Shown piece after piece: positions 46,294-63,909 of a stretch of DNA of 64,000 nt; position 1 is the first letter of the stretch; each line of letters begins with the position of its first letter. The notes beneath the pieces were generated by a model, which searched no databases, was not told where the DNA came from, and saw nothing but the letters and a program-made list of their open reading frames with translations. Source of the DNA: an uncultured Alphaproteobacteria bacterium (lineage in GTDB: Bacteria; Pseudomonadota; Alphaproteobacteria; RF32; CAG-239); contig CALYAW010000008.1 of NCBI GenBank assembly GCA_944393685.1, forward strand, positions 1-64,000, read 5' to 3'. The translations under genes and the position numbers were made by a program.

Positions 46294-46368
46294 TGGGGTG
46301 TCGCCAAGTGGTAAGGCAACGGTTTTTGGTATCGTCATTCGTTGGTTCGAATCCAGCCACCCCAGCCA
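46294..46368 (+). tRNA. tRNA-Gln (anticodon TTG), island insertion site
   Basis: A 75-nt tRNA with encoded CCA. The acceptor is TGGGGTG/CACCCCA, the anticodon stem ACGGT/ATCGT has loop TTTTGGT (anticodon TTG), and the T loop is TTCGAAT. It is intact. An integrase gene begins 108 bp downstream, so its 3' end is the probable attachment core. Confidence 0.95.
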
Positions 46369-46379
46369 AGCAAAATGAG

Positions 46380-46410
46380 AAGCCATTGATTTTCAATGGC
46401 TTTTTTCTTT
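46380..46410 (+). terminator. tRNA-Gln terminator
   Basis: The hairpin AAGCCATTGA/TCAATGGCTT is followed by T-rich sequence, 12 bases after the tRNA. Confidence 0.8.
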
Positions 46411-46476
46411 AGAAAAAGCCTTCAAATGTCGGGAAATGCCCTTTTGTAACATCTGAGACAGTTGGGTGAGACAGTC

Positions 46477-48297
46477 ATGGCCTTAAAACAAAATCATTTG
46501 GAACGCAGAAATCACACCTATTATTTCCGCTATTGGATACCCAAATCACTCCAACCTTTCTTCAAAAAAACGCACGTTAGGTATTCTTTAAACACTAATG
46601 ATTACAATATAGCCATCCTGCTATTGAAGCGAGAAACTTTTAAGTTTGATACGTTAATCAATGATTTGGAACGGCTGCTGATGGAAATAAAAAACAACAA
46701 ACTCATTCTTTCCGATGACGATATCGAAAATATCGTTGCCAGCCGCATTAAAGAGATTCAAAACAAGTTAGACGATTCTTATTTTCAAATTAAAAATAAT
46801 CAGCTCTCGGTACATGAGCTTGATATCACTATGCTCAGCCGCTCGGATTATGAACATTCCGATAGTTATGGTTCTTATGAAGATTTTAAGGATGAGCAAG
46901 TTGTCAGCTTTGTAAAGAAATATATCACTTCGCTCAAACAAAACAAACGTATTCCCCCTTCGGTATTTGATTTCTTAAAACGAACCGTTAAAAAGAACGC
47001 GGTTGAACCTGAGCCCAATCAAAGACCGGAATGGCTGGATAAGCTGGAAAATCATTTGGCTCTGGCCGATGATTATGCTCTGAACAGAGCCAATGCCATT
47101 CAAACCGACAACCGCAATTTCTACATTCCGGCAGTCATTGAGCGTTGCTTAAGTTATATAGAAGAAGAAAGAACCGCCAATACCGTTCGTTCGCCGCAAA
47201 TTAAAACACATTGGAAGACTCTGTTTGAAAAATTCAGAGAATATAAGAAAAATGTCAAAGGAACCGGCGATAACACTTTATATCAAGATGAAACCTGTCT
47301 GGATGTGGTGTTCAGTTTGGTTAATAAGAAATATGTTGAAAATTTAACCGCTAAAGACTGTGATACGATTTCAACCAAAATCTATTATGTGCCACGCGGT
47401 TGGAAGAAGATGAGTGCTTCCAAACACAAAAAGCTAACCGATATGCTTTTGCCCGAGATTGGTGATAAGACCATGTCCACCACCACGGTCAAACGCTACT
47501 TACGCGTATTCAAAGAATTTTTAACCTACGCCCAGAGAAAAGGTTATGTCAGTGCGGACTTAAACGTTCAGATAGAAATTCCGGTCAAAGATAGCCGCCA
47601 AAGCTATGACCGCTTTACCAAAGCCAAGTTATTGAAGATATTTAATCCTGAATATTATCCCTATCCGGAAGATGAAAACTTTGCCTATCGCTACTTTATT
47701 CCGCTAATGGCCTTATACAGCGGTGCTCGTCTGAACGAATTATGCCAACTTTATTGCGATGACATCAAAAAAGAAAACAATATTTATTATATGATTTTTA
47801 CAGATGAACGTCCCGACCAACATTTGAAAAATAAGGTTTCTAAAAGAATTGTGCCGATTCATCCCAAAATTATTGAAATGGGCTTTTTAGATTATTTGCT
47901 TTCGGTGAAATCCAAACGCAAACAACGCGTATTTTATCAGCTTACTTACGCTCAATATAATCACTATGCCGATAAAATGTCCAAATGGTTTGGCAGATAT
48001 TTAGAAAGCATAGGTATCAGCGGCAAGAGAAAAGTCTTTCACAGCTTTCGCCATACGGTAAAACCGGAACTCCGCGATGCCAATGTCGGCAGAGAATATC
48101 AAAACGCTATTTGCGGATGGGAAGGTATTGATACCGGTGAAAGAGTATATGGCAGCAATTTCCCGATTGAAATCCTTTATAACGAAATCTGCAAATTGCA
48201 ATATCCGTATTTGGATGAAAACTTAAAGAAAATCAAAGCCCGCGTCCCCTCACCCCGCCAAAGACTAAGAATGCGTCTTTATGGTGATAAAGCGTAG
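46477..48297 (+). CDS. int: Tyrosine site-specific integrase
   Basis: This 606-residue phage/island integrase has an N-terminal DUF6538-like segment (LERRNHTYYFRYWIPKSL), a SAM-like core-binding region, and the catalytic domain from about residue 380. Active-site residues are visible: Arg in YSGARLNELCQL, Lys in KNKVSKRIVPIH, H-x-x-R in FHSFRHTVKPEL, Trp in CGWEG (in place of the second His) and the nucleophile Tyr in ERVYGSNF. It sits at the left end of the island. The ATG at 46477 is chosen over the GTG five codons earlier. Confidence 0.92.
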   Translation: MALKQNHLERRNHTYYFRYWIPKSLQPFFKKTHVRYSLNTNDYNIAILLLKRETFKFDTLINDLERLLMEIKNNKLILSDDDIENIVASRIKEIQNKLDDSYFQIKNNQLSVHELDITMLSRSDYEHSDSYGSYEDFKDEQVVSFVKKYITSLKQNKRIPPSVFDFLKRTVKKNAVEPEPNQRPEWLDKLENHLALADDYALNRANAIQTDNRNFYIPAVIERCLSYIEEERTANTVRSPQIKTHWKTLFEKFREYKKNVKGTGDNTLYQDETCLDVVFSLVNKKYVENLTAKDCDTISTKIYYVPRGWKKMSASKHKKLTDMLLPEIGDKTMSTTTVKRYLRVFKEFLTYAQRKGYVSADLNVQIEIPVKDSRQSYDRFTKAKLLKIFNPEYYPYPEDENFAYRYFIPLMALYSGARLNELCQLYCDDIKKENNIYYMIFTDERPDQHLKNKVSKRIVPIHPKIIEMGFLDYLLSVKSKRKQRVFYQLTYAQYNHYADKMSKWFGRYLESIGISGKRKVFHSFRHTVKPELRDANVGREYQNAICGWEGIDTGERVYGSNFPIEILYNEICKLQYPYLDENLKKIKARVPSPRQRLRMRLYGDKA

Positions 48298-48312
48298 AAA
48301 GAAAGTAGTTCA

Positions 48313-49098
48313 ATGCAAAAGCATAAAGAAGAAGAAAAAGAAATTTTAAATTATTTTCTATCAACTCCAATGGGAAAAAGATGGTATAACAAACTCAATG
48401 TAAAAGAAACTATAGAAACAGAAAGCCCTGATTTTATTTTTCTTACTCAAACAGGAAAAAAAATTGGCTTAGAAGTAACAAAATTTCTTGTTAAAAGCAA
48501 ACATCGGCGTGCTCTGCAAGCATTGAAAAATACAGGAAATAAAATCTGTAATTATTCCCTAAAACATCATAATTTACCATTATCAATAATTATTGATAAA
48601 TTTGATAAAAGGATTCACCAAGGAAGAACAAAGAAAGACCTTCTTGATGCCGTATATAATCCTGGATTTATTGATATATTCAACGAAAAAGAAATAAAGG
48701 CTCAAATTGAACCATTTATTGATGATAACGTAGAAAAATTAAAAAAATTTCCTAGATTAGTAAAAAAGTGGGTCAAAGTTAATGATGAATTTTTATGTTT
48801 TACAATTTCAGGTTTCCCCAATATTGATGGGCAGTACGACTGCTTCGTTAACAACGAATGCTTTAGTTTAGAAGACCCTTTTGAACAATTACAACAAACA
48901 ATAGATAACAAAAATGAAAAATACAATACTTTTATAAAGAAATGTGACGAGTGCAATTTGTTAGTTTTCAATCCGAGTGTATCTGAAGGGAATTACTGTC
49001 ATTTTACCAATAAAATAAAGCAACATAAATTTATATCAAAATATAAACAGACTTTTTTCTGTGGAGCTTATACTCCGTCTTGTATCAACCTAAAATAA
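48313..49098 (+). CDS. Unknown protein with PD-(D/E)xK-like motif
   Basis: This 261-residue soluble protein shows near residues 37-55 the pattern PDF-I-F ... GKKIGLEVTKF, resembling the PD-(D/E)xK nuclease core (Asp, then E-x-T-K). The rest is Lys-rich and unrecognised, with several Cys near the C-terminus (CDEC). It starts 15 bp after the integrase and is probably cotranscribed. A nuclease role in element transfer or defence is inference from a weak motif. Confidence 0.45.
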   Translation: MQKHKEEEKEILNYFLSTPMGKRWYNKLNVKETIETESPDFIFLTQTGKKIGLEVTKFLVKSKHRRALQALKNTGNKICNYSLKHHNLPLSIIIDKFDKRIHQGRTKKDLLDAVYNPGFIDIFNEKEIKAQIEPFIDDNVEKLKKFPRLVKKWVKVNDEFLCFTISGFPNIDGQYDCFVNNECFSLEDPFEQLQQTIDNKNEKYNTFIKKCDECNLLVFNPSVSEGNYCHFTNKIKQHKFISKYKQTFFCGAYTPSCINLK

Positions 49099-49146
49099 TT
49101 CACCCCTTAAATTGTTCCCTAAAAATAACAACAAAACAGGAAAATA

Positions 49147-50451
49147 CTATTTCTTAGTCAAAGCATCTTCTTTGTACTTTTTAATTATATCATTCTTATT
49201 CTTCTGATCGATAATATCCATAGATCTTTTAATCCCCAATCTCTGTCTGCATTCCGCCGCCGATGAATTTTTAATTTTTTCTTGATATTTATTAAAGAAC
49301 GCGAACATTTCTTTATCTATCTCTGCATCTAAAGCATTAAATTCATTTTTAGCGTGACAAAATGAGTAATGATGAGACCAGCCTGTTATTTTTCCATTTA
49401 CAGTATTTAGCGTTTCAAAAAAACTTTTCCTTTTTATTGCTTTATCATTCAAAGCATCTGTTAGCAAATTACGTATTTCTGTTTTTATTTTGTTAAAAGC
49501 TTTTTGAGTAGGTTTTATCCGACATTTTGAAATATCAACACCTAAATATTCGATACAATTTTTTGCAAGATTAACACAATCTTTTGTTGTTTTATTTACA
49601 GAAATACCCAGCCCCAAAGCTTCCAAATCAGGCACTAATTGTTCTAAAAAAGCCTTTTCAACATCTTCTTTCGTTTTACCTAAGATAATAACATCATCTA
49701 TATATCTAAGATAGGTAATATTTGAATTTGAAAGCATTTTCAAATCTAAATCATACAAATAAATATTACCAAACAACGGTGATAAACAACTTCCTTGAGG
49801 AACTCCTTCTTCCGTATAAATATACTGGTAATACAAGTCTTCTCTATCTTTGATTGTATCTAAATTAGAAACCTCTAACTGAATAGCATTTTTTAACAAT
49901 TTCATAAAATCATCATCATGACAAAATTCAGCAATCCTATTTAAAACGCTATCACTCTTAATTTTAGTAAAAAATGATTTAATATCAGTTGCTTTTGCAA
50001 AAATATGCCCTTTATCTCTAAGAGAACAATATATTGTCTTTACTGCCATAGCCACATTTTTCTTTCTAAGGCCACCATAGCTCGCATCACAATTAAAATA
50101 TTTTTGCATTTTAGCATGATTTTGTAAGATATCTAACAAACACTTTTGTACAATTCTACCTTCAACCGTATTTAGGTTAACAACAGGCCTTTCACTTTTT
50201 TTGTCTTTCTTTTTAATTGGTGTTGCTTCTGAACTGAATTGAAAAGTATGTTGCCGCAATTGTTCTCTGAGATTTGCCAGACTTTGTTCTATATTTTTCT
50301 GAAAATGTTCGGCCTTGCCTTTCATCTTTTCATTTTTTGATGCAGATATGCGTGCCTGAACATGCCCCCACGCACTACGCAAATTATCCAACTTGCATAG
50401 CTCATTATAAAATTTTGTTCTTATTCGACTACATTTTTTCACTTTGGGCAC
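49147..50451 (-). CDS. Reverse transcriptase, group II-like, YIDD active site
   Basis: This 434-residue RNA-dependent DNA polymerase has RT motif A with D156 (FAKATDIKSFF), motif B GVPQGSCLSPLFGNIYL (residues 216-232), and motif C RYIDDVIIL with YIDD at 250-253. A thumb/X-like region, ITGWSHHYSFCH, lies near residue 355. Motif B and the X-like region resemble group II intron RTs, but I see no endonuclease domain and no intron domain V after the gene. It lacks the SQ motif of diversity-generating RTs. It starts with GTG 18 bp after a 91-residue ORF. Retron or defence RT functions cannot be excluded. Confidence 0.88.
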   Translation of the reverse strand: MPKVKKCSRIRTKFYNELCKLDNLRSAWGHVQARISASKNEKMKGKAEHFQKNIEQSLANLREQLRQHTFQFSSEATPIKKKDKKSERPVVNLNTVEGRIVQKCLLDILQNHAKMQKYFNCDASYGGLRKKNVAMAVKTIYCSLRDKGHIFAKATDIKSFFTKIKSDSVLNRIAEFCHDDDFMKLLKNAIQLEVSNLDTIKDREDLYYQYIYTEEGVPQGSCLSPLFGNIYLYDLDLKMLSNSNITYLRYIDDVIILGKTKEDVEKAFLEQLVPDLEALGLGISVNKTTKDCVNLAKNCIEYLGVDISKCRIKPTQKAFNKIKTEIRNLLTDALNDKAIKRKSFFETLNTVNGKITGWSHHYSFCHAKNEFNALDAEIDKEMFAFFNKYQEKIKNSSAAECRQRLGIKRSMDIIDQKNKNDIIKKYKEDALTKK

Positions 50452-50468
50452 TCAGCAGCTCTCTCAAA

Positions 50469-50477
50469 CCTATTCAT
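50469..50477. repeat. 9-bp inverted repeat, left arm
   Basis: CCTATTCAT is the reverse complement of ATGAATAGG at 50900-50908. Each arm sits a few bases from the start of one 143-bp direct repeat. In a minus-strand transcript the arms could pair and close a loop of about 420 nt containing the 91-residue ORF. Confidence 0.5.
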
Positions 50478-50745
50478 GAAGGGGGACTGTAGCTTCAATT
50501 GGTGTAGTAGATATTATCTCTAGACCTATGTCAAGTTCTTGGACTTGTGTCCTTGTTCTTGACTTCTCGGATGTATTGACGGCTTGGGATATTTGGCTTC
50601 CTTCTGCTGTCTCTTTCCTTATTGAAACAGTCAAACTCTTTGCAAAGCGTTTCTTCTTTCGAAGTTGTGCTTTCAACTCTAAGATTCCGGAAATCTTTAT
50701 TAGACAAAATTTCCAAAACAATTCTTTTGTTTGCTTTAATTTCAT
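50470..50745 (-). CDS. 91-residue protein upstream of the reverse transcriptase
   Basis: This small basic, soluble ORF has a strong ribosome-binding site (GGAGG, 7 nt before ATG). The first 40 residues are Lys-rich helix (LKAQLRKKKRFAK). Residues about 40-86 are encoded by repeat copy A (IRKETAEGSQISQAVNTSEK and on). No family recognised. Position suggests an RT accessory protein, or that the RNA rather than the protein matters. Confidence 0.55.
   Translation of the reverse strand: MKLKQTKELFWKFCLIKISGILELKAQLRKKKRFAKSLTVSIRKETAEGSQISQAVNTSEKSRTRTQVQELDIGLEIISTTPIEATVPLHE
50485..50627. repeat. 143-bp direct repeat, copy A
   Basis: Base by base I find no difference from 50911-51053. Copy A forms the 3' part of the 91-residue ORF. 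Confidence 0.92.
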
Positions 50746-50899
50746 TTCTTTACCTCCAACTTGAGTTTAACACTTTTTGTTTTTAGTCAAGAACAAAATT
50801 TCAAGCTTCATTTCTCGCCAGCTTATCTCCAACTTCAAAGAAAATCTAGCAACCGCCTGCTGAGTTCCACTTCTGGATTGAGATACGGTTCTCTTCTTT

Positions 50900-50908
50900 A
50901 TGAATAGG
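50900..50908. repeat. 9-bp inverted repeat, right arm
   Basis: ATGAATAGG lies 2 bp before repeat copy B; it pairs with 50469-50477. Confidence 0.5.
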
Positions 50909-50910
50909 CT

Positions 50911-51053
50911 GACTGTAGCTTCAATTGGTGTAGTAGATATTATCTCTAGACCTATGTCAAGTTCTTGGACTTGTGTCCTTGTTCTTGACTTCTCGGATGT
51001 ATTGACGGCTTGGGATATTTGGCTTCCTTCTGCTGTCTCTTTCCTTATTGAAA
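50911..51053. repeat. 143-bp direct repeat, copy B
   Basis: A perfect copy of 50485-50627. The frame used in copy A is blocked here by a TAG just before the repeat (minus strand), so copy B is non-coding. The region 50746-51391 otherwise holds four copies of a 10-bp motif (51097-51233) and a terminator (51339-51372); I see no gene in it. Confidence 0.92.
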
Positions 51054-51096
51054 ACTACTGGCTTTAATTATGCATAAAAAATTTGGATATTCAATA

Positions 51097-51233
51097 AAAA
51101 ATGTTAAAGAACATACCTTTTTTAACATTTTCTTTGAAATGCTTGGAATTGCTAGGGATTTTATTTAAGCCTCTAGGGTGGCAAGGTAAAAATGTTAAAC
51201 TTTGTTAGTTTTAATAACTTTTCTTAACATTTT
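51097..51233. repeat. Four alternating copies of TTAACATTTT
   Basis: AAAATGTTAA at 51097-51106 and 51189-51198, and its complement TTAACATTTT at 51122-51131 and 51224-51233, form two inverted pairs about 92 bp apart with nearly equal internal spacing. They lie between repeat copy B and the second recombinase. They may be operators or recombinase sites. Confidence 0.5.
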
Positions 51234-51338
51234 GCCCTTTTATTTGATTTGGTATCAGTTCATTCAAGAAGCTTATTCTTCCCTAATACCCCTAGTTTTA
51301 ATTTTTGAAATTTTGATTTTTTTAATTTTACTCAAAAG

Positions 51339-51372
51339 AAAAAGCCTTACAAAAAAATGTAAGGCTTTTTTT
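51339..51372. terminator. Terminator after the second recombinase
   Basis: The stem AAAAAGCCTTAC/GTAAGGCTTTTT is symmetrical. Confidence 0.82.
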
Positions 51373-51391
51373 ACTTGGAGTTGATTTGATA

Positions 51392-52021
51392 TCACACTCT
51401 TGCATTTTCAACCGCATTTGCGAGCATATGTTCATTATAATTAAAATATCTTTGCGTGGTTGAGATGTTTTTATGATTAGCCAGCTTTTGCACCAAACAG
51501 ATATTCACGCCGGAATTTACCAATTTTGATACAAACAAATGTCGGCCGAGGTGGCTGGCTCCTTTTATGCTGAATTTGCGATAAACGGAACTAAACAAAC
51601 GGCTGATACTCACGCGATTGTAGGGTTTGTTTTGCTTTTGCGATGTAAATAAATAGCTCTCTTGGTTCAAATTGCTTCGTGTTTGTTGCAGATACTTCAA
51701 ATATTCGGCAAATTCCTTCTTAATCTGCGAGTTCAAATAGTAGGAACATTTATTTTTGCCTTTGTTCTTGTCATAATCTAGGCAAATGGCGTCTTTGACT
51801 TTCAGGGTTTCGGTATAAACATCCTTAACCTGAAGATAACAAAAATTGATAGAACGCATACCGTTCAGCGAGCATAAAAACATCATCCGGATTTGTTCGG
51901 CGTGTTTCATTCCGCTGATATAGGTCAAAATATCTTTAATTTTCTTATCATCTACAAAAACGTCATTTACCATTGATTTTACTCTTTTTAACTTATTTAT
52001 ACTCATTTTGAAAGGAGACAT
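51392..52021 (-). CDS. Short tyrosine recombinase (catalytic domain only)
   Basis: This 209-residue protein covers only the catalytic domain of the lambda-integrase family: Arg in LNGMRSINFCYLQ, Lys in the KGKNKCSYYL hairpin, H-x-x-R in SHLGRHLFV, His in LANHKNISTTQ and the nucleophile Tyr in QRYFNYNEH. The N-terminal core-binding domain is missing. All catalytic residues are present, so it may act on nearby repeats as an invertase/resolvase, or it may be an N-terminally truncated integrase. Confidence 0.8.
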   Translation of the reverse strand: MSPFKMSINKLKRVKSMVNDVFVDDKKIKDILTYISGMKHAEQIRMMFLCSLNGMRSINFCYLQVKDVYTETLKVKDAICLDYDKNKGKNKCSYYLNSQIKKEFAEYLKYLQQTRSNLNQESYLFTSQKQNKPYNRVSISRLFSSVYRKFSIKGASHLGRHLFVSKLVNSGVNICLVQKLANHKNISTTQRYFNYNEHMLANAVENARV

Positions 52022-54990: not shown

Positions 54991-55401
54991 ATGAGCAAAA
55001 GTAAAGCTACATTATCTATTACCGAACGTCTGTTATTGGACTTCGTCAAATACAAAACAAATAACAATCATAAATTTTTTATGGGGAATGATAAAATCGC
55101 CATGGCTTTAGGATTAACGGTAAATTCCGCCAAAGTGATGATAAACGGACTTATCCGTGAAGGGTATCTTATCAAATCAATGGATACCCACGGCCGCAGA
55201 ATATTAGAATTATCCGACAAACCATACTTAACCATCGCTTGTGTTGATTTAAGCAACGTTGATAAACGCATTATATTGCAAGAAGCCCTGAACTTTCAAC
55301 GAGACGCCGAATACTACCAAAAACAATACGAATTTGAAAAAGCACGAGCCGACAGACTTCTGTCCGAACTCACACAGTTGAAGCTAAGCAGAATAGGCTA
55401 A
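54991..55401 (+). CDS. Winged-helix DNA-binding protein beside the iterons
   Basis: This 136-residue protein has an N-terminal helix-turn-helix/winged-helix region (LSITERLLLDFVKYKTNNN, then NDKIAMALGLTVNSAKVMINGLIREGYL), a short linker and a C-terminal coiled coil (YYQKQYEFEKARADRLLSEL) suited to dimerisation. The palindromic iterons upstream are natural targets, so it may be a replication initiator fragment, copy-number regulator or autorepressor. AGGAG precedes the ATG. Its end overlaps the convergent hsdR stop by 4 bases. Confidence 0.7.
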   Translation: MSKSKATLSITERLLLDFVKYKTNNNHKFFMGNDKIAMALGLTVNSAKVMINGLIREGYLIKSMDTHGRRILELSDKPYLTIACVDLSNVDKRIILQEALNFQRDAEYYQKQYEFEKARADRLLSELTQLKLSRIG

Positions 55402-58400
55402 ACTCTTTTAGCTTCTTTATTTGGATTTTGTTTCAAATCATTGTATAAAGCAGCAAACAAAGCTTTTTTCATAAAATCCATCTTTTCACTATCTTGGAAC
55501 AAATCCTTAAAGAACTGGTCATTTTGTTCGTATCTACTAACCATTGTTTCAGTAAAGTTTTCGTTATAAAGCCCCTTGAATAGAGTTTTATTTCTTTCTT
55601 TTCCAGCCTCAACCAAACGTTCATCCTGTTTTAAGTCTTCCATCACTTGGCTTAAAACTTTATCTTGTCCTGAAAAATTAGTTCCAAATCTTTCATTAAA
55701 CTTTTCAATAATGGTTGAAAGAGGGGATTTCTCTTTTTTACTACTACCTGAACCACCCTTAGGGGCTGAAGTTGTTCCTACCTTATCTTCTAGAATAATT
55801 CTACCTTCAAAGGTCTTTTCGTTCTTATAATATTCAAGCAAAAGCTTATCATCAACGTTAATTGGAGAACCTTTTTCTCTCCTAATACATTTGATTAAAA
55901 ATTTAGCAAAAACATAAAACTTTTCTAATTCAGCATCAAACATTCTAATAACTTGAGTTACAAAAGAATACATTTTCAAATAATTGTTTAAAGATGTTCT
56001 AAATTGCTCTTGTTCTACTTCTTTCATAACCTTAAAACGGTCTATTGCTGGTTGTAAAATGCTTGATAATTTTCCTAAATCATCCATATTGGCGGCAGAA
56101 GCATAATAAATATCCGCAAATCTTTCTACTTCTTGATTTTGATAAATTTGCATATCATCTAAAATTGATTTAAGTTTATATAACTCATTGGGGTCAATTT
56201 CTTTATCTAAAATTGTAGCTTGGTAATATTGCTGAAAAGATTGTTTAATATCTTCTGCTTCATTAACAAAGTCCAAAACAAAGGTATCTGTTTTTCCTTG
56301 TGTTGTTCTGTTGAGGCGAGAAAGGGTTTGAACAGCTTTCACATCATTGAGCTTTTTATCAACAAACATTGTATGCAATAAAGGTTCATCAAATCCTGTC
56401 TGATATTTTTCTGCCACAATCAGAATATTAAAATCATTGTGAAAATATTCTGGTAACTGTGTCTCTTTTATATGCTCTCCATCGGCTGTAACATTTAATT
56501 TTGTTTCAGAATAAGTAATACCATTATCTGTTAAGTCTCCAGAAAAGGCAACTAAGACATTTATATCTTTATAATCATGGTCTGCAATATATTTTCTAAA
56601 TTCTTGTAAATAGCGAACAGCATGTAATCTAGACGGAGTTACCACCATTGCTTTAGCTTTTCCGCCAATTTTATTTTTGGTAATTTCGTTAAAATGCTCA
56701 ACCATAATGGCTGTCTTTTGGGCAATATTATGAGGATGCAATGTTTCAAAGCGAGAAATTGCTTTTGCTCCTTTAGATGTTTCCAGTTCAGGATCATCAG
56801 CTACTTTTTTGATTAGTTTGTAATAAGTCTTATATGTCGTATAATTTTGTAAGACATCTAAAATAAATCCCTCTTCAATAGCCTGTTGCATTGAATAGAT
56901 ATGAAAAGGTTTAAATGTTCCGTCTGGTTGTCTTTCTCCAAATCTATTCAAAGTTTTTGCTTTAGGAGTTGCCGTAAAAGCAAAAAAGGATAAATTTTTA
57001 TGATTTCCTTGTGCAGCCAATGTTTTAATCAGTAAATCTTCACTATCTTCTTTAGAAAGCTCTTTTTTACCTTCAATATCGGCATATTCTTTTAAAGTTT
57101 CTTCTAAATTTGCTAAGCCTTTAATTACTGTTCCGGCATCTTTGCCTGATTGTGAAGAATGGGCTTCATCAACAATAATGGCAAAGTTTTTATTATCTGA
57201 AGTAATATCTTTGTATATCAACGGAAACTTTTGCAATGTAGAAATAATGATTTTTGTATCACTATTGATAGCTTCCAAGAGCTCTTTTGAACCATTTTTC
57301 ACTTTTTTAACCACACCTGCTACATGGTCAAATTGATAGATTGTATCTTGTAACTGAGCATCTAAAACTCTTCTGTCGGTTAAAACAATAATAGAATTAA
57401 AGATATTTTCATCATGGTTGTCGTGAAGTCCGGCCAATTGATGAGCTAGCCAAGCAATAGAGTTAGATTTTCCTGAACCAGCCGAGTGTTGAATTAAATA
57501 ATTTTTTCCTACTCCGTTTGTCTTTACATCAGCTAATAGTTTGGTAACAACATCTAATTGATGATATCTTGGAAAAATCATAATTTCTTTGGTTTTGACA
57601 CCTTTTTTATCTTTTATAATTTGCAAATGCAGATATTTTTGCACAATTTCCATAAAACTATCTTTAGCAAGAACTTTCTCCCAAAGGTAAGATGTTGCAA
57701 AACCATTCGGATTAACAGGATTTCCTTTACCTCCAACATTTCCGGCTCCATTTGAACCTTGGTTAAAAGGTAGAAAATAAGTGCTGTCTCCTTGTAATTT
57801 GGTTGTCATATAAACATTATACAAATCCACGGCAAAATGAACCAATACTCTATTCTTAAATTCAAAAATGGCATCTTTTCCGGCTCTGTCAAATTTATAT
57901 TGAGAAATTGCATTGCTATAATCTTGTCCGGTAAATTGATTTTTTAATTCCATAGAAACTAACGGAATACCATTTAAAAACAAAACAATATCTATACTAT
58001 TTTCATTAGATAACGAATAGTGCAATTGGCGAGTGCAGTGTAGAATATTTTGATTATATAAATCAACGGCCTCTTGGTTGATATGGCTTTCTGGCTTAAA
58101 ATAACATAGATAAAACTTTACACCGCGGTCTTGGAAAGGTTTTCTCAAACATTTGAGCAAACCGTTATCCTTTATTGCCTTGCATAAGTTAGAAATAAAA
58201 CATTCTTCCGGATTAACAGGATAATGAGTTTGATAACGTTTCCAAGCCTTAGGCTGAGTTGTTTTAATAAAATTAAGCAAAGTTTCAGTATCAAGAGCCA
58301 ATTTTCGGTCAAAATTGGCTGGATTACCTTTTTGGTATCCTCCTTGGGTAATAAGAGAATGCTCAATTGCTTCTTCTAAATTTATTTCTTTTAAGTTATC

Positions 58401-58409
58401 TTCAGCCAT
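55398..58409 (-). CDS. hsdR: Type I restriction enzyme, R subunit
   Basis: This 1003-residue motor/nuclease subunit translocates and cuts unmethylated DNA. An N-terminal PD-(D/E)xK nuclease region (NSIDIVLFLNGIPLVSMELKN) is followed by the SF2 helicase: Walker A IQHSAGSGKSNSIAWL, DEAH box IIVDEAHSSQSG, motif III FFAFTATPKAK and motif VI-like VQTLSRLNRTTQGK. The C-terminal HsdR helical region is present. It is the last gene of the operon, behind two membrane proteins. Confidence 0.95.
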   Translation of the reverse strand: MAEDNLKEINLEEAIEHSLITQGGYQKGNPANFDRKLALDTETLLNFIKTTQPKAWKRYQTHYPVNPEECFISNLCKAIKDNGLLKCLRKPFQDRGVKFYLCYFKPESHINQEAVDLYNQNILHCTRQLHYSLSNENSIDIVLFLNGIPLVSMELKNQFTGQDYSNAISQYKFDRAGKDAIFEFKNRVLVHFAVDLYNVYMTTKLQGDSTYFLPFNQGSNGAGNVGGKGNPVNPNGFATSYLWEKVLAKDSFMEIVQKYLHLQIIKDKKGVKTKEIMIFPRYHQLDVVTKLLADVKTNGVGKNYLIQHSAGSGKSNSIAWLAHQLAGLHDNHDENIFNSIIVLTDRRVLDAQLQDTIYQFDHVAGVVKKVKNGSKELLEAINSDTKIIISTLQKFPLIYKDITSDNKNFAIIVDEAHSSQSGKDAGTVIKGLANLEETLKEYADIEGKKELSKEDSEDLLIKTLAAQGNHKNLSFFAFTATPKAKTLNRFGERQPDGTFKPFHIYSMQQAIEEGFILDVLQNYTTYKTYYKLIKKVADDPELETSKGAKAISRFETLHPHNIAQKTAIMVEHFNEITKNKIGGKAKAMVVTPSRLHAVRYLQEFRKYIADHDYKDINVLVAFSGDLTDNGITYSETKLNVTADGEHIKETQLPEYFHNDFNILIVAEKYQTGFDEPLLHTMFVDKKLNDVKAVQTLSRLNRTTQGKTDTFVLDFVNEAEDIKQSFQQYYQATILDKEIDPNELYKLKSILDDMQIYQNQEVERFADIYYASAANMDDLGKLSSILQPAIDRFKVMKEVEQEQFRTSLNNYLKMYSFVTQVIRMFDAELEKFYVFAKFLIKCIRREKGSPINVDDKLLLEYYKNEKTFEGRIILEDKVGTTSAPKGGSGSSKKEKSPLSTIIEKFNERFGTNFSGQDKVLSQVMEDLKQDERLVEAGKERNKTLFKGLYNENFTETMVSRYEQNDQFFKDLFQDSEKMDFMKKALFAALYNDLKQNPNKEAKRV

Positions 58410-58419
58410 TGGCGTTCTC

Positions 58420-58839
58420 CTAATCTTTTATGCTCAACTCTTTACGAATATAATCCTTAAATATCTCTAGTCTTGCCTGTGCTTTATCTGGCTCATCAAG
58501 CAGAGATTGTTGAATTTCATAAAATTTATTACAAATATTTTTTGAACCATAAATTTGCAAACTCATATTCAGATTATTTAGATTATCTAGCTCTTCTGGG
58601 CTGCAAATATTATCACATTTGACCCTTATTACTATATTTGCACATATTTGTAAAATTTTCGTATAAGTTTCTTCTCTCTTCCTTTTTAAGTGTAGCTTTT
58701 CTTCTCTTTTAGCTCTTAAATATTCTATAAAGAACGTAAAACCCGATGTTAAAATAGCTCCGACAATAACACCTACCAGAGAGAAAAATCCTCCCAAAAA
58801 AATATCCAAGTTTTCTTTTATAAACACACTCCAATCCAT
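58420..58839 (-). CDS. Membrane-anchored coiled-coil protein, paralogue 1
   Basis: This 139-residue protein has an N-terminal transmembrane helix (LGGFFSLVGVIVGAILTSGF), then the basic motif FIEYLRAKREEKLHLKRKREE and a helical cytoplasmic part ending KDYIRKELSIKD. It is a tandem paralogue of the next gene (58843-59238) and sits between hsdS and hsdR. Function unknown. Confidence 0.65.
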   Translation of the reverse strand: MDWSVFIKENLDIFLGGFFSLVGVIVGAILTSGFTFFIEYLRAKREEKLHLKRKREETYTKILQICANIVIRVKCDNICSPEELDNLNNLNMSLQIYGSKNICNKFYEIQQSLLDEPDKAQARLEIFKDYIRKELSIKD

Positions 58840-58842
58840 AAC

Positions 58843-59238
58843 TTAATCCTTTATACCGAGTTCTTTACGAATTTCTTTTGCTAAGCTATTAACTTGACCT
58901 TCTGTAATTCCGTAAAATGCCTCTTTTAGAGATTCTGAAAACCATTCTTCTATATGTTGAGATGCATATACTTTTACTTCTGGGCGTAATTTTTTATGTT
59001 TTTCCCAAAAGTCCTTTATTTCAATATCACTAGGAGTCTTGTTGTCTCTATGGAGTTCCGTATATTCACTTAATAAATCTAATAATTTAAGATATACTTC
59101 TTCTCTTTTTCTTTTTAGATATAATTTTTCTTCTCTTTTAGCTCTTAAATATTCTATAAACCAAGTAAATCCTGCTGTTAAAACAGCTCCGATAATAACA
59201 CCAAAGGTTTGAGATGAAAAGAAATCAGACCATGTCAT
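58843..59238 (-). CDS. Membrane-anchored coiled-coil protein, paralogue 2
   Basis: This 131-residue protein has the same plan as its neighbour: one transmembrane helix (FGVIIGAVLTAGFTWF), FIEYLRAKREEKLYLKRKREE, and a helical tail ending LAKEIRKELGIKD. A DNA stretch of about 33 bp encoding the shared motif is identical in the two genes, indicating a fairly recent duplication. It starts 1 bp after hsdS. Confidence 0.65.
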   Translation of the reverse strand: MTWSDFFSSQTFGVIIGAVLTAGFTWFIEYLRAKREEKLYLKRKREEVYLKLLDLLSEYTELHRDNKTPSDIEIKDFWEKHKKLRPEVKVYASQHIEEWFSESLKEAFYGITEGQVNSLAKEIRKELGIKD

Positions 59239-59239
59239 A

Positions 59240-60523
59240 CTAAGCCACCTCTTTTTTGCCGGTTACACATTCAAAGATTAAGGATTTTTTATATTCTTCC
59301 AATTTGCTAATAGTTTCTTCTTTTTGTTTAATTGCTTCATCTATTTGGTTGCATTTTTTATCTAAATACTCAGCAATTTCTTTCTGCTCAGAAAGAGGAG
59401 GAAAAGTATAAGGGATATTTTTAAAGTCATCGTATCCTAAATCCCATTGTCCTATCCGAATTCCTTCCGACAATCTACGATATTCCGGTATATAGGCTTT
59501 ATTTCTAAGTAAATAATGTATATAACGAGAAAAAACTTTTATTGTAAATTCACATACATAATAAGCTGGACTAACGATACCTTGATAATTTGATACAGCT
59601 ATTGAGCCTTGCCATGTTTTCATTTTATTGATAACGACGTCATTTTCTTCAACAAATTTATAATTTTCGGTATTCTCTGATGTTACGTTGAAATTATCTT
59701 CACGAGATGATTTGATGACCACCCCTAAATCTCTGTATAATGAAAGAACCTCTTCGTTTGGCTTGTTTTTAATGCCTTTTTGACGCAGAAAATGTTTTGC
59801 TTTTCTGATGTTCCAATGTTCGGGGATTGAGCCAATCCATTCAATTCCACTATCTTTCAATTTTACATTTGGGTTCAGACCTTTGGTTACGGTTTCTGTA
59901 ATCAAAGATTGTTTATATTCTTTGAGCTTTTCTATGATTTGCTTCTGATTATCTATAGCAGTATCAATCTTCTCACATCTTTTATCCAAATAATCCGCTA
60001 TTTTTTTCTGCTCAGAAAGAGGAGGTATGGGAATAAATATATTCTTGATTTGTTTTGTTGAAACTCCTCCTATTAAGCCACTCATACTCAAAAAGAAATC
60101 AGTCAAAAACGAACTACTTTGCAAAGAATAATACATATATTTAGATAAACACTTTCTTAATGACTTGAAACAACATAATTTATTAACAAAACAAACATCT
60201 CTCTCAGTAAAACCAATTTTTTTTCCAGCACTTCCACCTTCTATACATAACAAAGATGAATTTTTAGGAGCTATTTTAAAATTTTTATCCATACAAGAAA
60301 TAAACATTCCTGTATCATATGTAATGCTATTTGTACTTACATCAATGTCTTTTGTAGAAATATAAGGAACAGAATTATCTTGATATTGATAATTATCTTT
60401 TTCATTATCACTAATGCTATTCCCTGTGTATATTAGGCTATTATATTTTATTTTTGTTAATATCCAATTTTCAGGAATTTGACCAATCCATTCAATCCCG
60501 CTATCTTTCATCGCCCTAGTCAT
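59240..60523 (-). CDS. hsdS: Type I restriction enzyme, specificity subunit
   Basis: This 427-residue subunit has two target-recognition domains. Each begins with KDSGIEWIG-x-IPE-x-W (about residues 6 and 225) and each is followed by a conserved coiled-coil repeat (PPLSEQKKIADYLDKRCEKI and PPLSEQKEIAEYLDKKCNQI). It determines the bipartite DNA sequence recognised by the HsdM/HsdR complex. It starts at an ATG with GGAG, directly after the SIR2-like gene. Confidence 0.95.
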   Translation of the reverse strand: MTRAMKDSGIEWIGQIPENWILTKIKYNSLIYTGNSISDNEKDNYQYQDNSVPYISTKDIDVSTNSITYDTGMFISCMDKNFKIAPKNSSLLCIEGGSAGKKIGFTERDVCFVNKLCCFKSLRKCLSKYMYYSLQSSSFLTDFFLSMSGLIGGVSTKQIKNIFIPIPPLSEQKKIADYLDKRCEKIDTAIDNQKQIIEKLKEYKQSLITETVTKGLNPNVKLKDSGIEWIGSIPEHWNIRKAKHFLRQKGIKNKPNEEVLSLYRDLGVVIKSSREDNFNVTSENTENYKFVEENDVVINKMKTWQGSIAVSNYQGIVSPAYYVCEFTIKVFSRYIHYLLRNKAYIPEYRRLSEGIRIGQWDLGYDDFKNIPYTFPPLSEQKEIAEYLDKKCNQIDEAIKQKEETISKLEEYKKSLIFECVTGKKEVA

Positions 60524-61519
60524 TTATAATTCTCCAATTTTTGAAGAAAGAACTTTTTCCATAATAAATCGCTCTGTAACCTTATAATCTTTTTTATCCT
60601 TTCCTGTGTATTCATAACTTACATTATCATTATCTTCTCCAAAAACTTTATCATAATTTTTACGAAGTTCCATCTCTGTACCAGGATTTACAATAAAGAT
60701 TTTGGCATTACTTTCACGAAGTGCTGACTGAAACAAGAACCTTACCGATGTATCTGTTACAGGAAAAGAAAAACCTATTATATAAATTTCTTCAGCATTT
60801 TTTAACAGCTGTTCAGCTTCTTGCCATAGAAACCTTATGGCAACATGGTTATAAAAAGCATTTTTATCCATTACCGGTGGAATAATATATGGCTTCAATC
60901 CTGCTTTTGAAACCTCGTTTTCGTTCCCCGTTGAATAGTATATAGTATCACCGGCTGATATTCCTGCCCAAAACCAATTTGCTGATCCATGCAATTTCAA
61001 TATTGCAGGTGCATCTTCTATTTTATTTCTTCCCCACAGAGGCCCTTCTCTACTAGCAACAGAAAGCATCGGATATTTATAGAAATCCTCATATTTTGAG
61101 CCTTCAATTTTATCTTTTAGCAAATTCTCCAACAAAAGATCATAATTTAGAGTAATAAAATCATATTCTGTTCTATGCTCTGCTATATGCTTAGAAAAAC
61201 ATTCAAATTCTTCTGATATTGCCACAGTCTGTGAGCTTAGCTTTATAAACTTGTCTGATATAATTTTGCTTATTGCTGCATATAATGCTTGATTTGCATA
61301 TTTAGTTGTATCTGACTTCCATGGAAAATCGGTGGAAAGATATGTTAATAAAGCTTCAACATCCTTTTTAATTTCTGGTGCTATTTCTTCATAGTGCTTT
61401 GCTACAGACCCTTTTTCTAATTGCAAATTAACATTTTCTGTTAAATCTTTTAGCAATGGATAATTTGGATTGATAGCCTTTGAGAAACCGGCACCTAAAA
61501 AAAACACTTTCTTACCCAT
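60524..61519 (-). CDS. SIR2-like protein embedded in the hsd operon
   Basis: This 331-residue protein has SIR2-type Rossmann motifs: VFFLGAGFSKA at the N-terminus, DFITLNYDLLLENLL, ILKLHGSANWFW and IYIIGFSFPVTDTSVRFLF. SIR2-like proteins in defence systems usually cleave NAD+ once triggered, causing abortive infection. The zinc-finger of true sirtuin deacetylases is absent. It overlaps the preceding gene by 8 bases. The start at 61519 (AGGAG) is preferred over a longer frame. Confidence 0.85.
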   Translation of the reverse strand: MGKKVFFLGAGFSKAINPNYPLLKDLTENVNLQLEKGSVAKHYEEIAPEIKKDVEALLTYLSTDFPWKSDTTKYANQALYAAISKIISDKFIKLSSQTVAISEEFECFSKHIAEHRTEYDFITLNYDLLLENLLKDKIEGSKYEDFYKYPMLSVASREGPLWGRNKIEDAPAILKLHGSANWFWAGISAGDTIYYSTGNENEVSKAGLKPYIIPPVMDKNAFYNHVAIRFLWQEAEQLLKNAEEIYIIGFSFPVTDTSVRFLFQSALRESNAKIFIVNPGTEMELRKNYDKVFGEDNDNVSYEYTGKDKKDYKVTERFIMEKVLSSKIGEL

Positions 61520-62198
61520 TGTTTTTCTCCTGTTCTGCAATGAATTGAAGAAATTCTTGTCCTAATTGCGTGGTTATAGGAGCAGATAATCGTCCCCAGT
61601 TTAAAATAACTTTATCAATATGGTTGGTTGGATATATCAGTAATTCTTCTGTTAATTCTTTAATAATTATATGCTCAATTTCTCTCTGTTCATACGTGAC
61701 ATTTTTTGCTTCTTGGGAAAATCTTTCCCCTGATATGTGATATAGTATTGCTCCATGAATATTATGTTTTTTTATAAACGAAAAATACTTTGCAGGATTA
61801 TTAAAATACATTAGTGTTTCAATATGTGCCAATGTATATCTTCTCAGCATATTCAAAAATATATGGGTTTTCATATTATCAATATTTTCATTTTTGATAG
61901 CATTGATGACAGCATTAATGTACAAACCCACTTTATCTTCTTCTATATCTTCCAATGCACCCCTTTGTGCCGTTGCTAATATATTGGCAAAATTAGACAT
62001 ATCCCTTATTTTTTGTTCCATATCTTGGTCTAATTTAGATAATCTTTTTATCGTTTCCTCTTTCCACAGCTCTATACGTTTTTGCCAATTGGAATTTACA
62101 TAATCTTCAAAAAATTTTGAAAATGCAGAAACGACTGGCATCTGGCTTAACAGAGCCAAAGCTCCCATTTTACCAATTTCTTTTACTTCCTTACTCAT
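61512..62198 (-). CDS. Helical protein of unknown function paired with SIR2
   Basis: This 228-residue, mainly helical protein has an N-terminal hydrophobic stretch (GALALLSQMPVVSAF) and a patterned core (SNFANILATAQRGALEDIEE, AVINAIKNENID, LRRYTLAHIETLMYFNNP). That resembles an uncharacterised helical family I recall near defence genes; the family is not named here because I cannot verify it. It starts 1 bp after hsdM and overlaps the SIR2 gene, so it is likely its sensor or partner. Confidence 0.6.
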   Translation of the reverse strand: MSKEVKEIGKMGALALLSQMPVVSAFSKFFEDYVNSNWQKRIELWKEETIKRLSKLDQDMEQKIRDMSNFANILATAQRGALEDIEEDKVGLYINAVINAIKNENIDNMKTHIFLNMLRRYTLAHIETLMYFNNPAKYFSFIKKHNIHGAILYHISGERFSQEAKNVTYEQREIEHIIIKELTEELLIYPTNHIDKVILNWGRLSAPITTQLGQEFLQFIAEQEKNNG

Positions 62199-62199
62199 C

Positions 62200-63909
62200 T
62201 TAAAACAATCCCTTTAAGGTTTGTTCCAAATCTTTTTGTAAAGTCATAATTTCTGATAATACCTCATCAGATGAGCGAGGTGGAACATATTTGTAAAAAT
62301 ATCTTGTAAATGGAATTTCATAGCCAATTTTAGTTTTGCTTTCATCTATCCAAGCATCCGGAGCAAAAGGAATCACTTCTCGCTGAAAATATTCATGAAT
62401 ATCTTCTGTTAAAGGCACATTTTCTGTATCTCTTAATTCAGAATCCGCTACAGGCTTACCTTTTTTCAAGATAATTTCGCCATTTTCATCCCTTTGCGGA
62501 CGTTCAACTACAATCTTTGCATAGCCAAAGTCTTCGTTATTAAAAATCTTACTGATTTCATTTTCTTTGAAATCTCCGTAAATTTGTGTGATTTTATCTA
62601 TATACTTTTGCGGAATGTCGTTTCTCTTATTTCCTAATGATTTACGGCGTTTTTCATATAGTCCATTAGCATTTATAAGTTGAACCTTGCCTTTTCTTTC
62701 TACAGGCTTTTTGTTGTTAAATACCCAAATATAGGTTGCAATGCCGGTATTATAAAACAAATCATTAGGTAGAGCTACGATAGCTTCTAACAAATCATTT
62801 TCTAATATATATTTGCGTATTTCTGATTGTCCGCTTCCGGCATCACCACTAAATAAAGGAGAACCATTTTGAATAATAGCAACTTTTGAACCTTCCGGTC
62901 TCATTTTGTGGATTGCTGTTTGCAAAAAGAGCATTTGCCCATCACTAATAGGCGGTAATCCAGCACCAAAACGCCCTGCAAAACCCAATTTTGCTTCTTT
63001 TTCCACGGCGTTTTTATCATTTTTCCATTCCCTACCAAAAGGCGGATTAGATAATATATAATCAAACTTATCATCTGCAAATTGGTCATCAGATAATGTA
63101 TTGCCGCATTTAATATTGTTTGCATCATTTCCTTTAATGAGCATATCTCCTTTACAAATAGCAAAGGTTTGGTCATTTATCTCTTGTCCATAACAAATAA
63201 GCTTTGCGTTTTTGTTTAGCCTTGAAAGATATTCTTCTGCAACAGAAAGCATTCCACCCGTTCCTACGGTTGGGTCATATAGTGTTTTTGCAACATTTCC
63301 GGTCAATATACTATTATCATTATTGAAAAGTATATTAACCATGAGTTCTATGACTTCTCTTGGGGTATAGTGTTGTCCAGCATCTTCGTTATGAGCTTCT
63401 GAAAAGCGGCGAATAATTTCTTCAAAAATATATCCCATTTCCAAGTTGCTAACTTTTGAAGGATGTAAGTCAGCATCTGGTGTATTAAACTTTTTTATAA
63501 CCATATAAAGTAAGTCATGTGAAGCTAATCTTTCAATATGGCGTTCAAATTCAAAATGCTCTAAAATATCTTTTACATTATCGGAAAAATCATTCAAATA
63601 TGAACGGAAATTTATTTCAATACTGTCAGGAGCGTCTAATAATCGTTTGAAATTAAATTTACTTGTATTGTAAAACGGATGTCCGCTTGCCTTTTTTAAA
63701 AAGATATCTTTCATCGGCAAATTGCTAACTTCAGGCAATTTTTTTAATACAGCTTCCTTGGTATCTTCCAAAATACAATCAAAACGCTTAATAACCATCA
63801 TTGGCAAAATAACTTCGCCATATTCATGAGGTTTATATGTTCCGGTCAAAACATCGGCTATTGACCAGATTAAATTTGCTTTTTGATTGATATTTCCGTT
63901 TATAGACAT
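62200..63909 (-). CDS. hsdM: Type I restriction enzyme, methyltransferase subunit
   Basis: This 569-residue N6-adenine methyltransferase has the HsdM N-terminal domain, the SAM-binding motif DPTVGTGGM (residues 212-220) and the catalytic NPPF (288-291). QHYTPREVIELM is the usual HsdM signature before the SAM motif. It protects host DNA and is needed for restriction. It is the first gene of the operon, with AGAGGAATT upstream of the ATG. Confidence 0.97.
   Translation of the reverse strand: MSINGNINQKANLIWSIADVLTGTYKPHEYGEVILPMMVIKRFDCILEDTKEAVLKKLPEVSNLPMKDIFLKKASGHPFYNTSKFNFKRLLDAPDSIEINFRSYLNDFSDNVKDILEHFEFERHIERLASHDLLYMVIKKFNTPDADLHPSKVSNLEMGYIFEEIIRRFSEAHNEDAGQHYTPREVIELMVNILFNNDNSILTGNVAKTLYDPTVGTGGMLSVAEEYLSRLNKNAKLICYGQEINDQTFAICKGDMLIKGNDANNIKCGNTLSDDQFADDKFDYILSNPPFGREWKNDKNAVEKEAKLGFAGRFGAGLPPISDGQMLFLQTAIHKMRPEGSKVAIIQNGSPLFSGDAGSGQSEIRKYILENDLLEAIVALPNDLFYNTGIATYIWVFNNKKPVERKGKVQLINANGLYEKRRKSLGNKRNDIPQKYIDKITQIYGDFKENEISKIFNNEDFGYAKIVVERPQRDENGEIILKKGKPVADSELRDTENVPLTEDIHEYFQREVIPFAPDAWIDESKTKIGYEIPFTRYFYKYVPPRSSDEVLSEIMTLQKDLEQTLKGLF

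What the first reader, a model, noticed from the sequence alone, without database searches (positions are those of the whole stretch)
49147..51060. Reverse transcriptase locus with a perfect 143-bp repeat, one copy inside a small upstream ORF
Upstream of an RT (minus strand) lie two 143-bp repeats that I find identical base by base. Copy A (50485-50627) forms the 3' part of a 91-residue ORF with a strong ribosome-binding site; copy B (50911-51053) is non-coding. Inverted 9-mers (CCTATTCAT / ATGAATAGG) sit next to each copy and could close a large RNA loop. The layout (template-like copy outside, variable-like copy at a gene 3' end, RT next door) recalls diversity-generating retroelements. However, the copies do not differ at adenines and the RT lacks the family's SQ motif, so a different copying system is possible.
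Basis: partly seen in the sequence, partly recalled or inferred. Interest (0 to 1): 0.85.

Follow-up and report, generated by a model that had tools for sequence, protein, structure and literature searches.

The report
Repeat-flanked permuted gene beside G2L4 RT
The duplicated 143-bp sequence beside this reverse transcriptase is not a quirk of one genome: the same layout (two identical ~130-bp repeats bracketing a scrambled small gene) turned up next to relatives of this enzyme in unrelated bacteria, which suggests that the enzyme copies the RNA and joins the repeats to make a gene that the chromosome holds only in pieces.

Summary
In detail: copy A 50485-50627 and copy B 50911-51053 are identical over 143 bp and lie upstream of an RT (49147-50451, minus strand). 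The RT belongs to the G2L4 clade (YIDD; E 6e-50 to the G2L4 crystal structures). G2L4 is known so far as a DNA-repair RT.

The duplication is a recurrent trait of G2L4 loci. Of 14 such loci with their upstream sequence, 12 (7 unrelated unit lineages) carry two 113-143 bp repeats with 0-4 mismatches at a near-constant place; the other two hold one repeat. Fourteen other RT loci have none. The copies evolve in concert (17 of 17 substitutions shared in one pair of loci). A short stem pairs the sequence just after B with that just after A.

Joining repeat to repeat gives one continuous ORF with its own Shine-Dalgarno (134 aa here); in the chromosome it is split and in permuted order. I propose that the RT switches template between the repeats and makes circular or concatemeric cDNA that restores the gene, as DRT2 does for neo. 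The architecture is solid. The RT mechanism is inference (about 0.6), and expression of the joined protein less certain (about 0.45). A DGR is rejected. I found no description of these repeats in the papers searched.

The parts
49147..50451 (-). G2L4-clade reverse transcriptase (434 aa, GTG start, YIDD)
50485..50627 (-). Direct repeat copy A (R, RT-proximal), 143 bp
50911..51053 (-). Direct repeat copy B (R, RT-distal), 143 bp, identical to A
50628..50910 (-). 283-bp spacer. Read on the minus strand: C-half of the permuted ORF, stop, Shine-Dalgarno, ATG, N-half. B plus spacer is the 426-bp unit
50767..50910 (-). C-half: continuation of the repeat's reading frame from copy B to a TAA stop (SLFIKKRTVS...KNKKC*)
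50628..50745 (-). N-half: ATG 50745, Shine-Dalgarno GGAGGT about 50757-50752; runs into copy A
50470..50745 (-). 91-aa ORF as it stands in the chromosome (N-half plus copy A, stop 12 nt past the repeat)
50900..50908 (-). Stem arm S5' (CCTATTCAT), directly 3' of copy B
50469..50477 (-). Stem arm S3' (ATGAATAGG), directly 3' of copy A
48313..49098 (+). 261-aa ORF of unknown function, inside the module that is almost identical in three genera; possible partner
   Evidence: single-sequence fold uninformative
48298..51111 (.). Module with 0-2 mismatches between genera, against about 2-8% differences outside it: recently transferred unit holding repeats, RT and the 261-aa ORF
   Evidence: end points approximate

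Best explanation
The locus is an RT-linked retro-unit that stores a small gene in permuted form. The chromosomal order, read along the minus strand, is R(B) - C-half - stop/Shine-Dalgarno/ATG - N-half - R(A) - RT. Shown: the two R copies are kept near-identical, a stem pairs the sequence right after B with that right after A, and the layout is a conserved feature of G2L4 RT loci. Inferred: RNA from the unit is the template of the G2L4 RT. When the RT reaches the 5' R (B), the cDNA end transfers to the 3' R (A) by homology, as in retroviral strand transfer or the A-B-A' realignment of DRT10 and telomerase, and copying continues. The product is a circular or concatemeric cDNA in which N-half, R and C-half are continuous. 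Inferred, less certain: the restored ORF (134 aa here, 108-134 aa in most loci) is then expressed, probably as an anti-phage effector, as neo is in DRT2. Writing such cDNA back into the chromosome would also explain why the copies stay identical.
For: (1) 12 of 14 G2L4 loci with upstream sequence, in 7 unrelated unit lineages of alpha- and gammaproteobacteria, have repeats of 113-143 bp with copy A 158-210 nt and copy B 507-602 nt upstream of the RT match start; 14 non-G2L4 RT loci have none longer than 28 nt. (2) Concerted evolution: between L090 and L091 all 17 substitutions in R are present in both copies. (3) Stem between post-B and post-A sequence: 7 bp or more in 11 of 12 loci, against 16% of mispaired controls, with different sequences in different lineages. 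(4) In all 12 loci the frame of R is open at least 132 nt past R through copy B; through copy A it usually stops soon (Wilcoxon p 0.016; C-half openness per lineage, Fisher p 0.015). The window's circular ORF has p 0.007 against shuffles; antisense shows no signal. (5) In the alpha family R has dN/dS 0.43 in the assembled frame, 0.97 and 1.30 in the other sense frames. (6) The L018 RT is fused to an RNase HI domain (PF00075, E 3.5e-22), as expected for copying RNA into double-stranded DNA. (7) Published G2L4 biochemistry: strand annealing, snap-back synthesis and joining of homologous ends (PMC12337344). (8) Defence setting: Type I RM with a SIR2-like gene at 55-64 kb in the window, a TIR gene near the Pseudomonas copy, phage genes beside L090 and L093.
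Against: No RNA or cDNA data. Protein evidence is uneven: alpha-family dN/dS is only 0.71-0.75 in the N- and C-halves; most differences between L020 and L089 in the spacer look non-synonymous; L090 and L091 have a stop just upstream of the N-half and need a downstream GTG; R peptides are unrelated between lineages (mean z -0.1). Promoters at the expected place before B are not better than shuffles. The Shine-Dalgarno-ATG also serves the truncated chromosomal ORF. G026 and L019 keep an intact RT with only one R.
Confidence: 0.55

Rival explanations
1. DNA-level recombination switch: the repeats recombine as DNA (RecA, single-strand annealing, perhaps helped by the annealing activity of G2L4), excising a 426-bp circle that carries the complete gene and leaving one R. 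The RT acts as a DNA-repair polymerase, not as a reverse transcriptase of this RNA.
For: One-R loci occur twice in separate lineages (G026; L019), exactly what R x R recombination leaves. G2L4 is reported to act in microhomology end joining (PMC12337344, PMC13015716). The G128 assembly breaks at the edge of R.
Against: A circle without an origin would be lost. It does not explain the stem after B and A, the RNase H fusion, or a fixed distance to the RT. Ordinary direct repeats would tend to be lost, yet the pair is kept in 12 of 14 loci.
Confidence: 0.2
2. Retro-unit whose cDNA itself, not a protein, is the product (as the tandem-repeat DNA of DRT10 or the homopolymer of DRT9). R and the stem serve template switching; the open frames are a by-product.
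For: R peptides are unrelated between lineages. Spacer motifs are conserved at nucleotide level (TGCAAAAACGTGCCA in L016, L018, L020/L089 and L085). Protein constraint on the N- and C-halves is weak.
Against: dN/dS 0.43 for R in one frame of the alpha family; open assembled frame in 12 of 12 loci; Shine-Dalgarno and start placed right after the C-half stop.
Confidence: 0.17
3. Diversity-generating retroelement: B is a template repeat, A a variable repeat at the 3' end of the 91-aa ORF.
For: Layout of an outer copy and a copy at an ORF 3' end beside an RT.
Against: Identical copies in the window and 0-4 mixed differences elsewhere, without adenine bias; no SQ motif; RT of the G2L4 clade.
Confidence: 0.02
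4. Recent duplication or assembly artefact without function.
For: The copies are identical and a one-R allele exists in G026.
Against: The same layout with unrelated sequence in 7 lineages, including complete records, and none in 14 control RT loci.
Confidence: 0.01

Closest known systems
G2L4 (group II intron-like 4) RTs, e.g. the P. aeruginosa enzyme of PDB 9D5X/9D4S
   Same: RT clade, YIDD, no intron RNA; P0002 of L020 is 48.6% and the window RT 29.9% identical to 9D5X
   Different: Published work treats the RT alone as a DNA double-strand-break repair enzyme. I found no mention of an upstream repeat unit. The window RT lacks the RR pair of the RT3a plug and most of the RT0 serine cluster
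DRT2 (neo gene assembly), PMC12039810 and PMC11100668
   Same: RT next to an upstream RNA unit; cDNA concatemers would restore an ORF that the genome holds permuted
   Different: DRT2 jumps on short motifs; its ORF is on the cDNA strand, stop-free, in units divisible by three. Here the repeats are ~130 bp, the ORF is on the sense strand with its own start and stop, and 11 of 12 units are not divisible by three. The RT family differs
DRT10 (UG17)
   Same: A-B-A' template logic; second-best PADLOC match (131 bits); a tyrosine recombinase often nearby
   Different: DRT10 makes ~9-nt tandem repeats and needs a SLATT protein (PMC12632851). No SLATT gene was recognised beside the window RT; repeats are over ten times longer
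Retroviral/LTR strand transfer through terminal R repeats
   Same: A repeat at both ends of the copied RNA; solo-repeat alleles; RNase H fused to one RT
   Different: No gag, no retroviral integrase; the RT gene lies outside the unit; mechanism here is inferred
Diversity-generating retroelements
   Same: Two repeats near an RT, one at an ORF 3' end
   Different: No adenine mutagenesis, different RT, copies kept identical

Membership tests
G2L4 RT | YIDD (not YADD) at the active site | tested here: met
   LRYIDDV in the window RT
G2L4 RT | Closest solved relatives are G2L4 and it groups apart from other RTs | tested here: met
   E 6e-50 to 9d5x, next relative 2e-13. All repeat-bearing RTs and 9d5x separate from controls, support 0.954; the exact place of the window RT inside is unresolved
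G2L4 RT | No group II intron RNA | tested here: met
   No Rfam intron match in the window
G2L4 RT | RT3a plug with R190/R191 and RT0 serine cluster S28-S30 | tested here: not met
   Window has KD and SKN at these places; several other loci also lack them, so these mark the Pseudomonas subgroup rather than the clade
G2L4 RT | Microhomology end-joining activity | not testable with these tools
   Biochemical
DGR | Template and variable repeats differing at adenines | tested here: not met
DGR | DGR-type RT with SQ motif | tested here: not met
   EGVPQGSCLSP in the window RT; G2L4 affinity
DRT2 | Stop-free ORF on the cDNA strand, unit divisible by 3 | tested here: not met
   Only the window unit is divisible by 3; no antisense signal
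DRT2 | RT-made concatemeric cDNA restoring promoter and ORF | not testable with these tools
   Needs cDNA sequencing; ORF restoration is predicted
DRT10 (UG17) | Adjacent SLATT-domain protein | tested here: not met
   No SLATT match among neighbouring ORFs scanned
Retron | RT above the retron model cut-off | tested here: not met
   51 bits against cut-off 235 for the St85 model; msr/msd structure not searched
Group II intron | Intron RNA and RT/maturase above cut-off | tested here: not met
   158 bits against cut-off 300; no intron RNA

The most novel reading that the evidence does not exclude
G2L4 RTs are not primarily DNA-repair enzymes. Each comes with its own RNA whose ~130-nt terminal repeats allow a retrovirus-like strand transfer in bacteria, building an episomal cDNA gene whose protein exists in no continuous chromosomal reading frame.
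Probability: 0.4. Interest if true: 0.97.

Novelty: new variant of a known kind. Interest (0 to 1): 0.9.

Why it matters
G2L4 RTs have crystal structures and a published repair role, but in the papers I could search no RNA partner. A long, homogenised repeat pair at nearly every G2L4 locus gives a specific hypothesis about natural substrate and product, and would add a further RT family to those that build genes from RNA. It would also show homology-driven strand transfer, familiar from retroviruses, as a bacterial way to hide a gene until an RT assembles it. The test is simple: sequence the DNA for repeat-repeat junctions with and without an active RT.

Tried and rejected
Rfam: only tRNAs in the window. 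The repeat DNA has no relative in plasmids or phages and none in 152 family genomes beyond G026 and G128. Assembled proteins: no significant Pfam or PHROGs match; no continuous (unpermuted) homologue in plasmids. The spacer-motif 15-mer scanned over IMG/VR gave 38 stretches, of which only the known Pseudomonas locus has repeats and an RT. The locus of the crystallised G2L4 protein was not found in IMG/VR. Promoter scan before copy B not above shuffles; the TTGACA-like box before the Shine-Dalgarno in alpha loci could just be the RT operon promoter. Never-ending antisense ORF as in DRT2: not found. Cross-lineage homology of the R peptide: none. Single-sequence model of the 261-aa ORF: pLDDT 38, not used.

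Full report
Observation. The two 143-bp repeats are real and identical. Copy A (50485-50627) forms the 3' part of a 91-aa ORF with a strong Shine-Dalgarno; copy B (50911-51053) lies 426 bp upstream. The 9-mers CCTATTCAT and ATGAATAGG lie directly after copy B and copy A in transcription order and pair perfectly. The RT is on the minus strand, 49147-50451.

The RT. It is full length and carries YIDD. Its closest solved relatives are the G2L4 RT structures 9d5x/9d4s (E 6e-50; next relative 2e-13). Group II and retron models match far below their cut-offs. PADLOC's best specific match is UG17 (131 bits), but a Pseudomonas RT that is 48.6% identical to 9d5x also matches UG17 at 121 bits, so this reflects the lack of a G2L4 model. 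In a tree, all repeat-bearing RTs and 9d5x separate from 11 other RTs (0.954), though the position of the window RT within the clade is not resolved. YIDD as the mark of G2L4 is from PMC4244168.

Close relatives. Two other genera of the same family carry a 100% identical RT. G026 holds only one R, joined to B's left flank and A's right flank, with no spacer. In G128 the contig starts exactly 127 nt before the right edge of R in an assembly whose contig is named k127, as a second R with another right flank would cause. From about 51.1 kb to 48.3 kb the sequences have 0-2 differences, against about 2-8% outside: the repeats, the RT and a 261-aa ORF moved together recently.

The repeats are a feature of G2L4 loci. 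The first distant relative examined, on a Pseudomonas plasmid (L020), has an exact 132-bp repeat pair of unrelated sequence with the same layout, down to a small ORF ending in copy A. A wider search gave 12 intact loci: window, L016, L018, L020, L083, L084, L085, L088, L089, L090, L091, L093. Repeat blocks are 113-143 bp with 0-4 mismatches and units 346-426 bp. L019 has one repeat-like segment followed by the same right flank as copy A. L017, L092, L094 and L106 are cut by contig ends. Fourteen RT loci of other groups have no direct repeat above 28 nt there; L086 and L087 have YADD and no repeat. Relatedness leaves seven independent unit lineages.

Concerted evolution. L090 and L091 differ at 17 of 133 positions of R, and each of the 17 differences is present in both copies. 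L020 and L089 have identical R, 97% identical spacers and only 53% identity left of B. The copies are therefore homogenised, or replaced together.

Stem. The sequence just 3' of B pairs with that just 3' of A with 7 bp or more in 11 of 12 loci, against 16% for mispaired loci. L018, the exception by exact pairing, can form 9 bp with one G-U (ACCTCTGGA/TCCAGGGGT; read). Lineages use different sequences, so the pairing rather than the sequence is kept. The window and Pseudomonas RNAs fold more stably than shuffles (z -3.4 and -3.3).

The permuted ORF. Joining R to R gives a continuous sense ORF in every unit: 134 aa in the window, 121 aa in L020, 114 aa in L018. In the chromosome it is split: the C-half follows copy B, then stop, Shine-Dalgarno and start, then the N-half running into copy A. 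In all 12 loci the frame of R is open 132 nt or more past R via B, while via A it usually ends within 100 nt (Wilcoxon p 0.016). Openness alone is only moderately significant per lineage (Fisher p 0.015) because many genomes are GC-rich; the AT-rich window gives p 0.007 for its circular ORF. In the alpha family R has dN/dS 0.43 in this frame against 0.97 and 1.30 in the other sense frames, but N- and C-halves only 0.75 and 0.71. R peptides are unrelated between lineages. So a coding R is well supported in one family; the whole assembled protein is plausible, not shown.

Mechanism. Shown: conserved paired repeats, their homogenisation, the stem, the RT linkage, and the split ORF. Inferred: transcription through the unit, reverse transcription by the G2L4 RT, and transfer of the cDNA end from B to A, giving circles or concatemers. 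Support for RT involvement is indirect: the tight linkage, an RNase HI domain fused to the L018 RT, published annealing and snap-back activities of G2L4 (PMC12337344), and precedent from DRT2, whose gene is hidden as a permuted template (PMC12039810), and DRT10, which realigns cDNA on an A-B-A' template (PMC12632851). The one-R alleles fit loss by R x R recombination. The main rival is that recombination of DNA, not reverse transcription, joins the repeats. A defence role is suggested by context: Type I RM and a SIR2-like gene at 55-64 kb in the window, a TIR-domain gene near the Pseudomonas copy, and phage structural or terminase-like ORFs next to L090 and L093.

Comparison with known systems. 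It is not a DGR (no adenine bias, wrong RT), not DRT10 (no SLATT gene recognised, long repeats), and not DRT2 in the strict sense (sense-strand ORF with a stop, unit length not a multiple of three in 11 of 12, other RT family), although it may work like DRT2. Searches of the held literature found eight papers that mention G2L4; the two G2L4 enzyme papers I searched for repeats mention none at their loci, and further searches found no such system. Absence from that library does not prove that it is undescribed; the 2022 paper that first reported G2L4 repair activity was not available to me.

Limits. About 1,780 genome look-ups and one viral collection were sampled; loci were found by RT similarity, so counts are not prevalence estimates. 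No expression data exist here.

Noticed in passing
46294-52021: Genomic island: tRNA 46294-46365, integrase 46462-48297 and a 209-aa tyrosine recombinase 51392-52021 flank the RT module. The recombinase is 99-100% identical in several genera and is found in 34 of 152 family genomes, so the island backbone spreads with different cargo.
   Followed up: partly
L010 (G128:C4 70058-70475): G128 holds a second homologue of the region upstream of the repeats (51519-51100) that diverges at 51100, close to the edge of the transferred module and to an imperfect inverted repeat (51089-51111/51118-51140): a possible cargo-exchange site.
   Followed up: no
48313-49098: 261-aa ORF of unknown function on the other strand, inside the module shared almost unchanged by three genera; its start region (SPDF...GLEVT) could suggest a nuclease-like fold. 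No database match.
   Followed up: partly
55398-63909: Type I restriction-modification operon (HsdR, HsdS, HsdM) with a SIR2-like protein (60524-61540) and three unassigned ORFs embedded in it.
   Followed up: partly
L018:1507-3210: G2L4-clade RT fused to a C-terminal RNase HI domain (PF00075, E 3.5e-22).
   Followed up: yes
L016, L018, L020, L085, L089 spacers: A 15-nt motif TGCAAAAACGTGCCA is invariant across very distant loci at the start of the N-half, even where the start codon is TTG: it looks like a nucleic-acid signal (priming or RT binding?) rather than a protein motif.
   Followed up: partly
L090 and L091 spacers: In two alpha loci the Shine-Dalgarno leads to an 11-codon ORF (MRELAPKNRLS*, MCDLTRKNRLA*) overlapping the N-half in another frame; possible leader peptide or reinitiation.
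   Followed up: no
G000:C11:300-905 (L079): A partial second copy (98% identity over 202 aa) of the island integrase lies near the start of another contig of the same genome.
   Followed up: no
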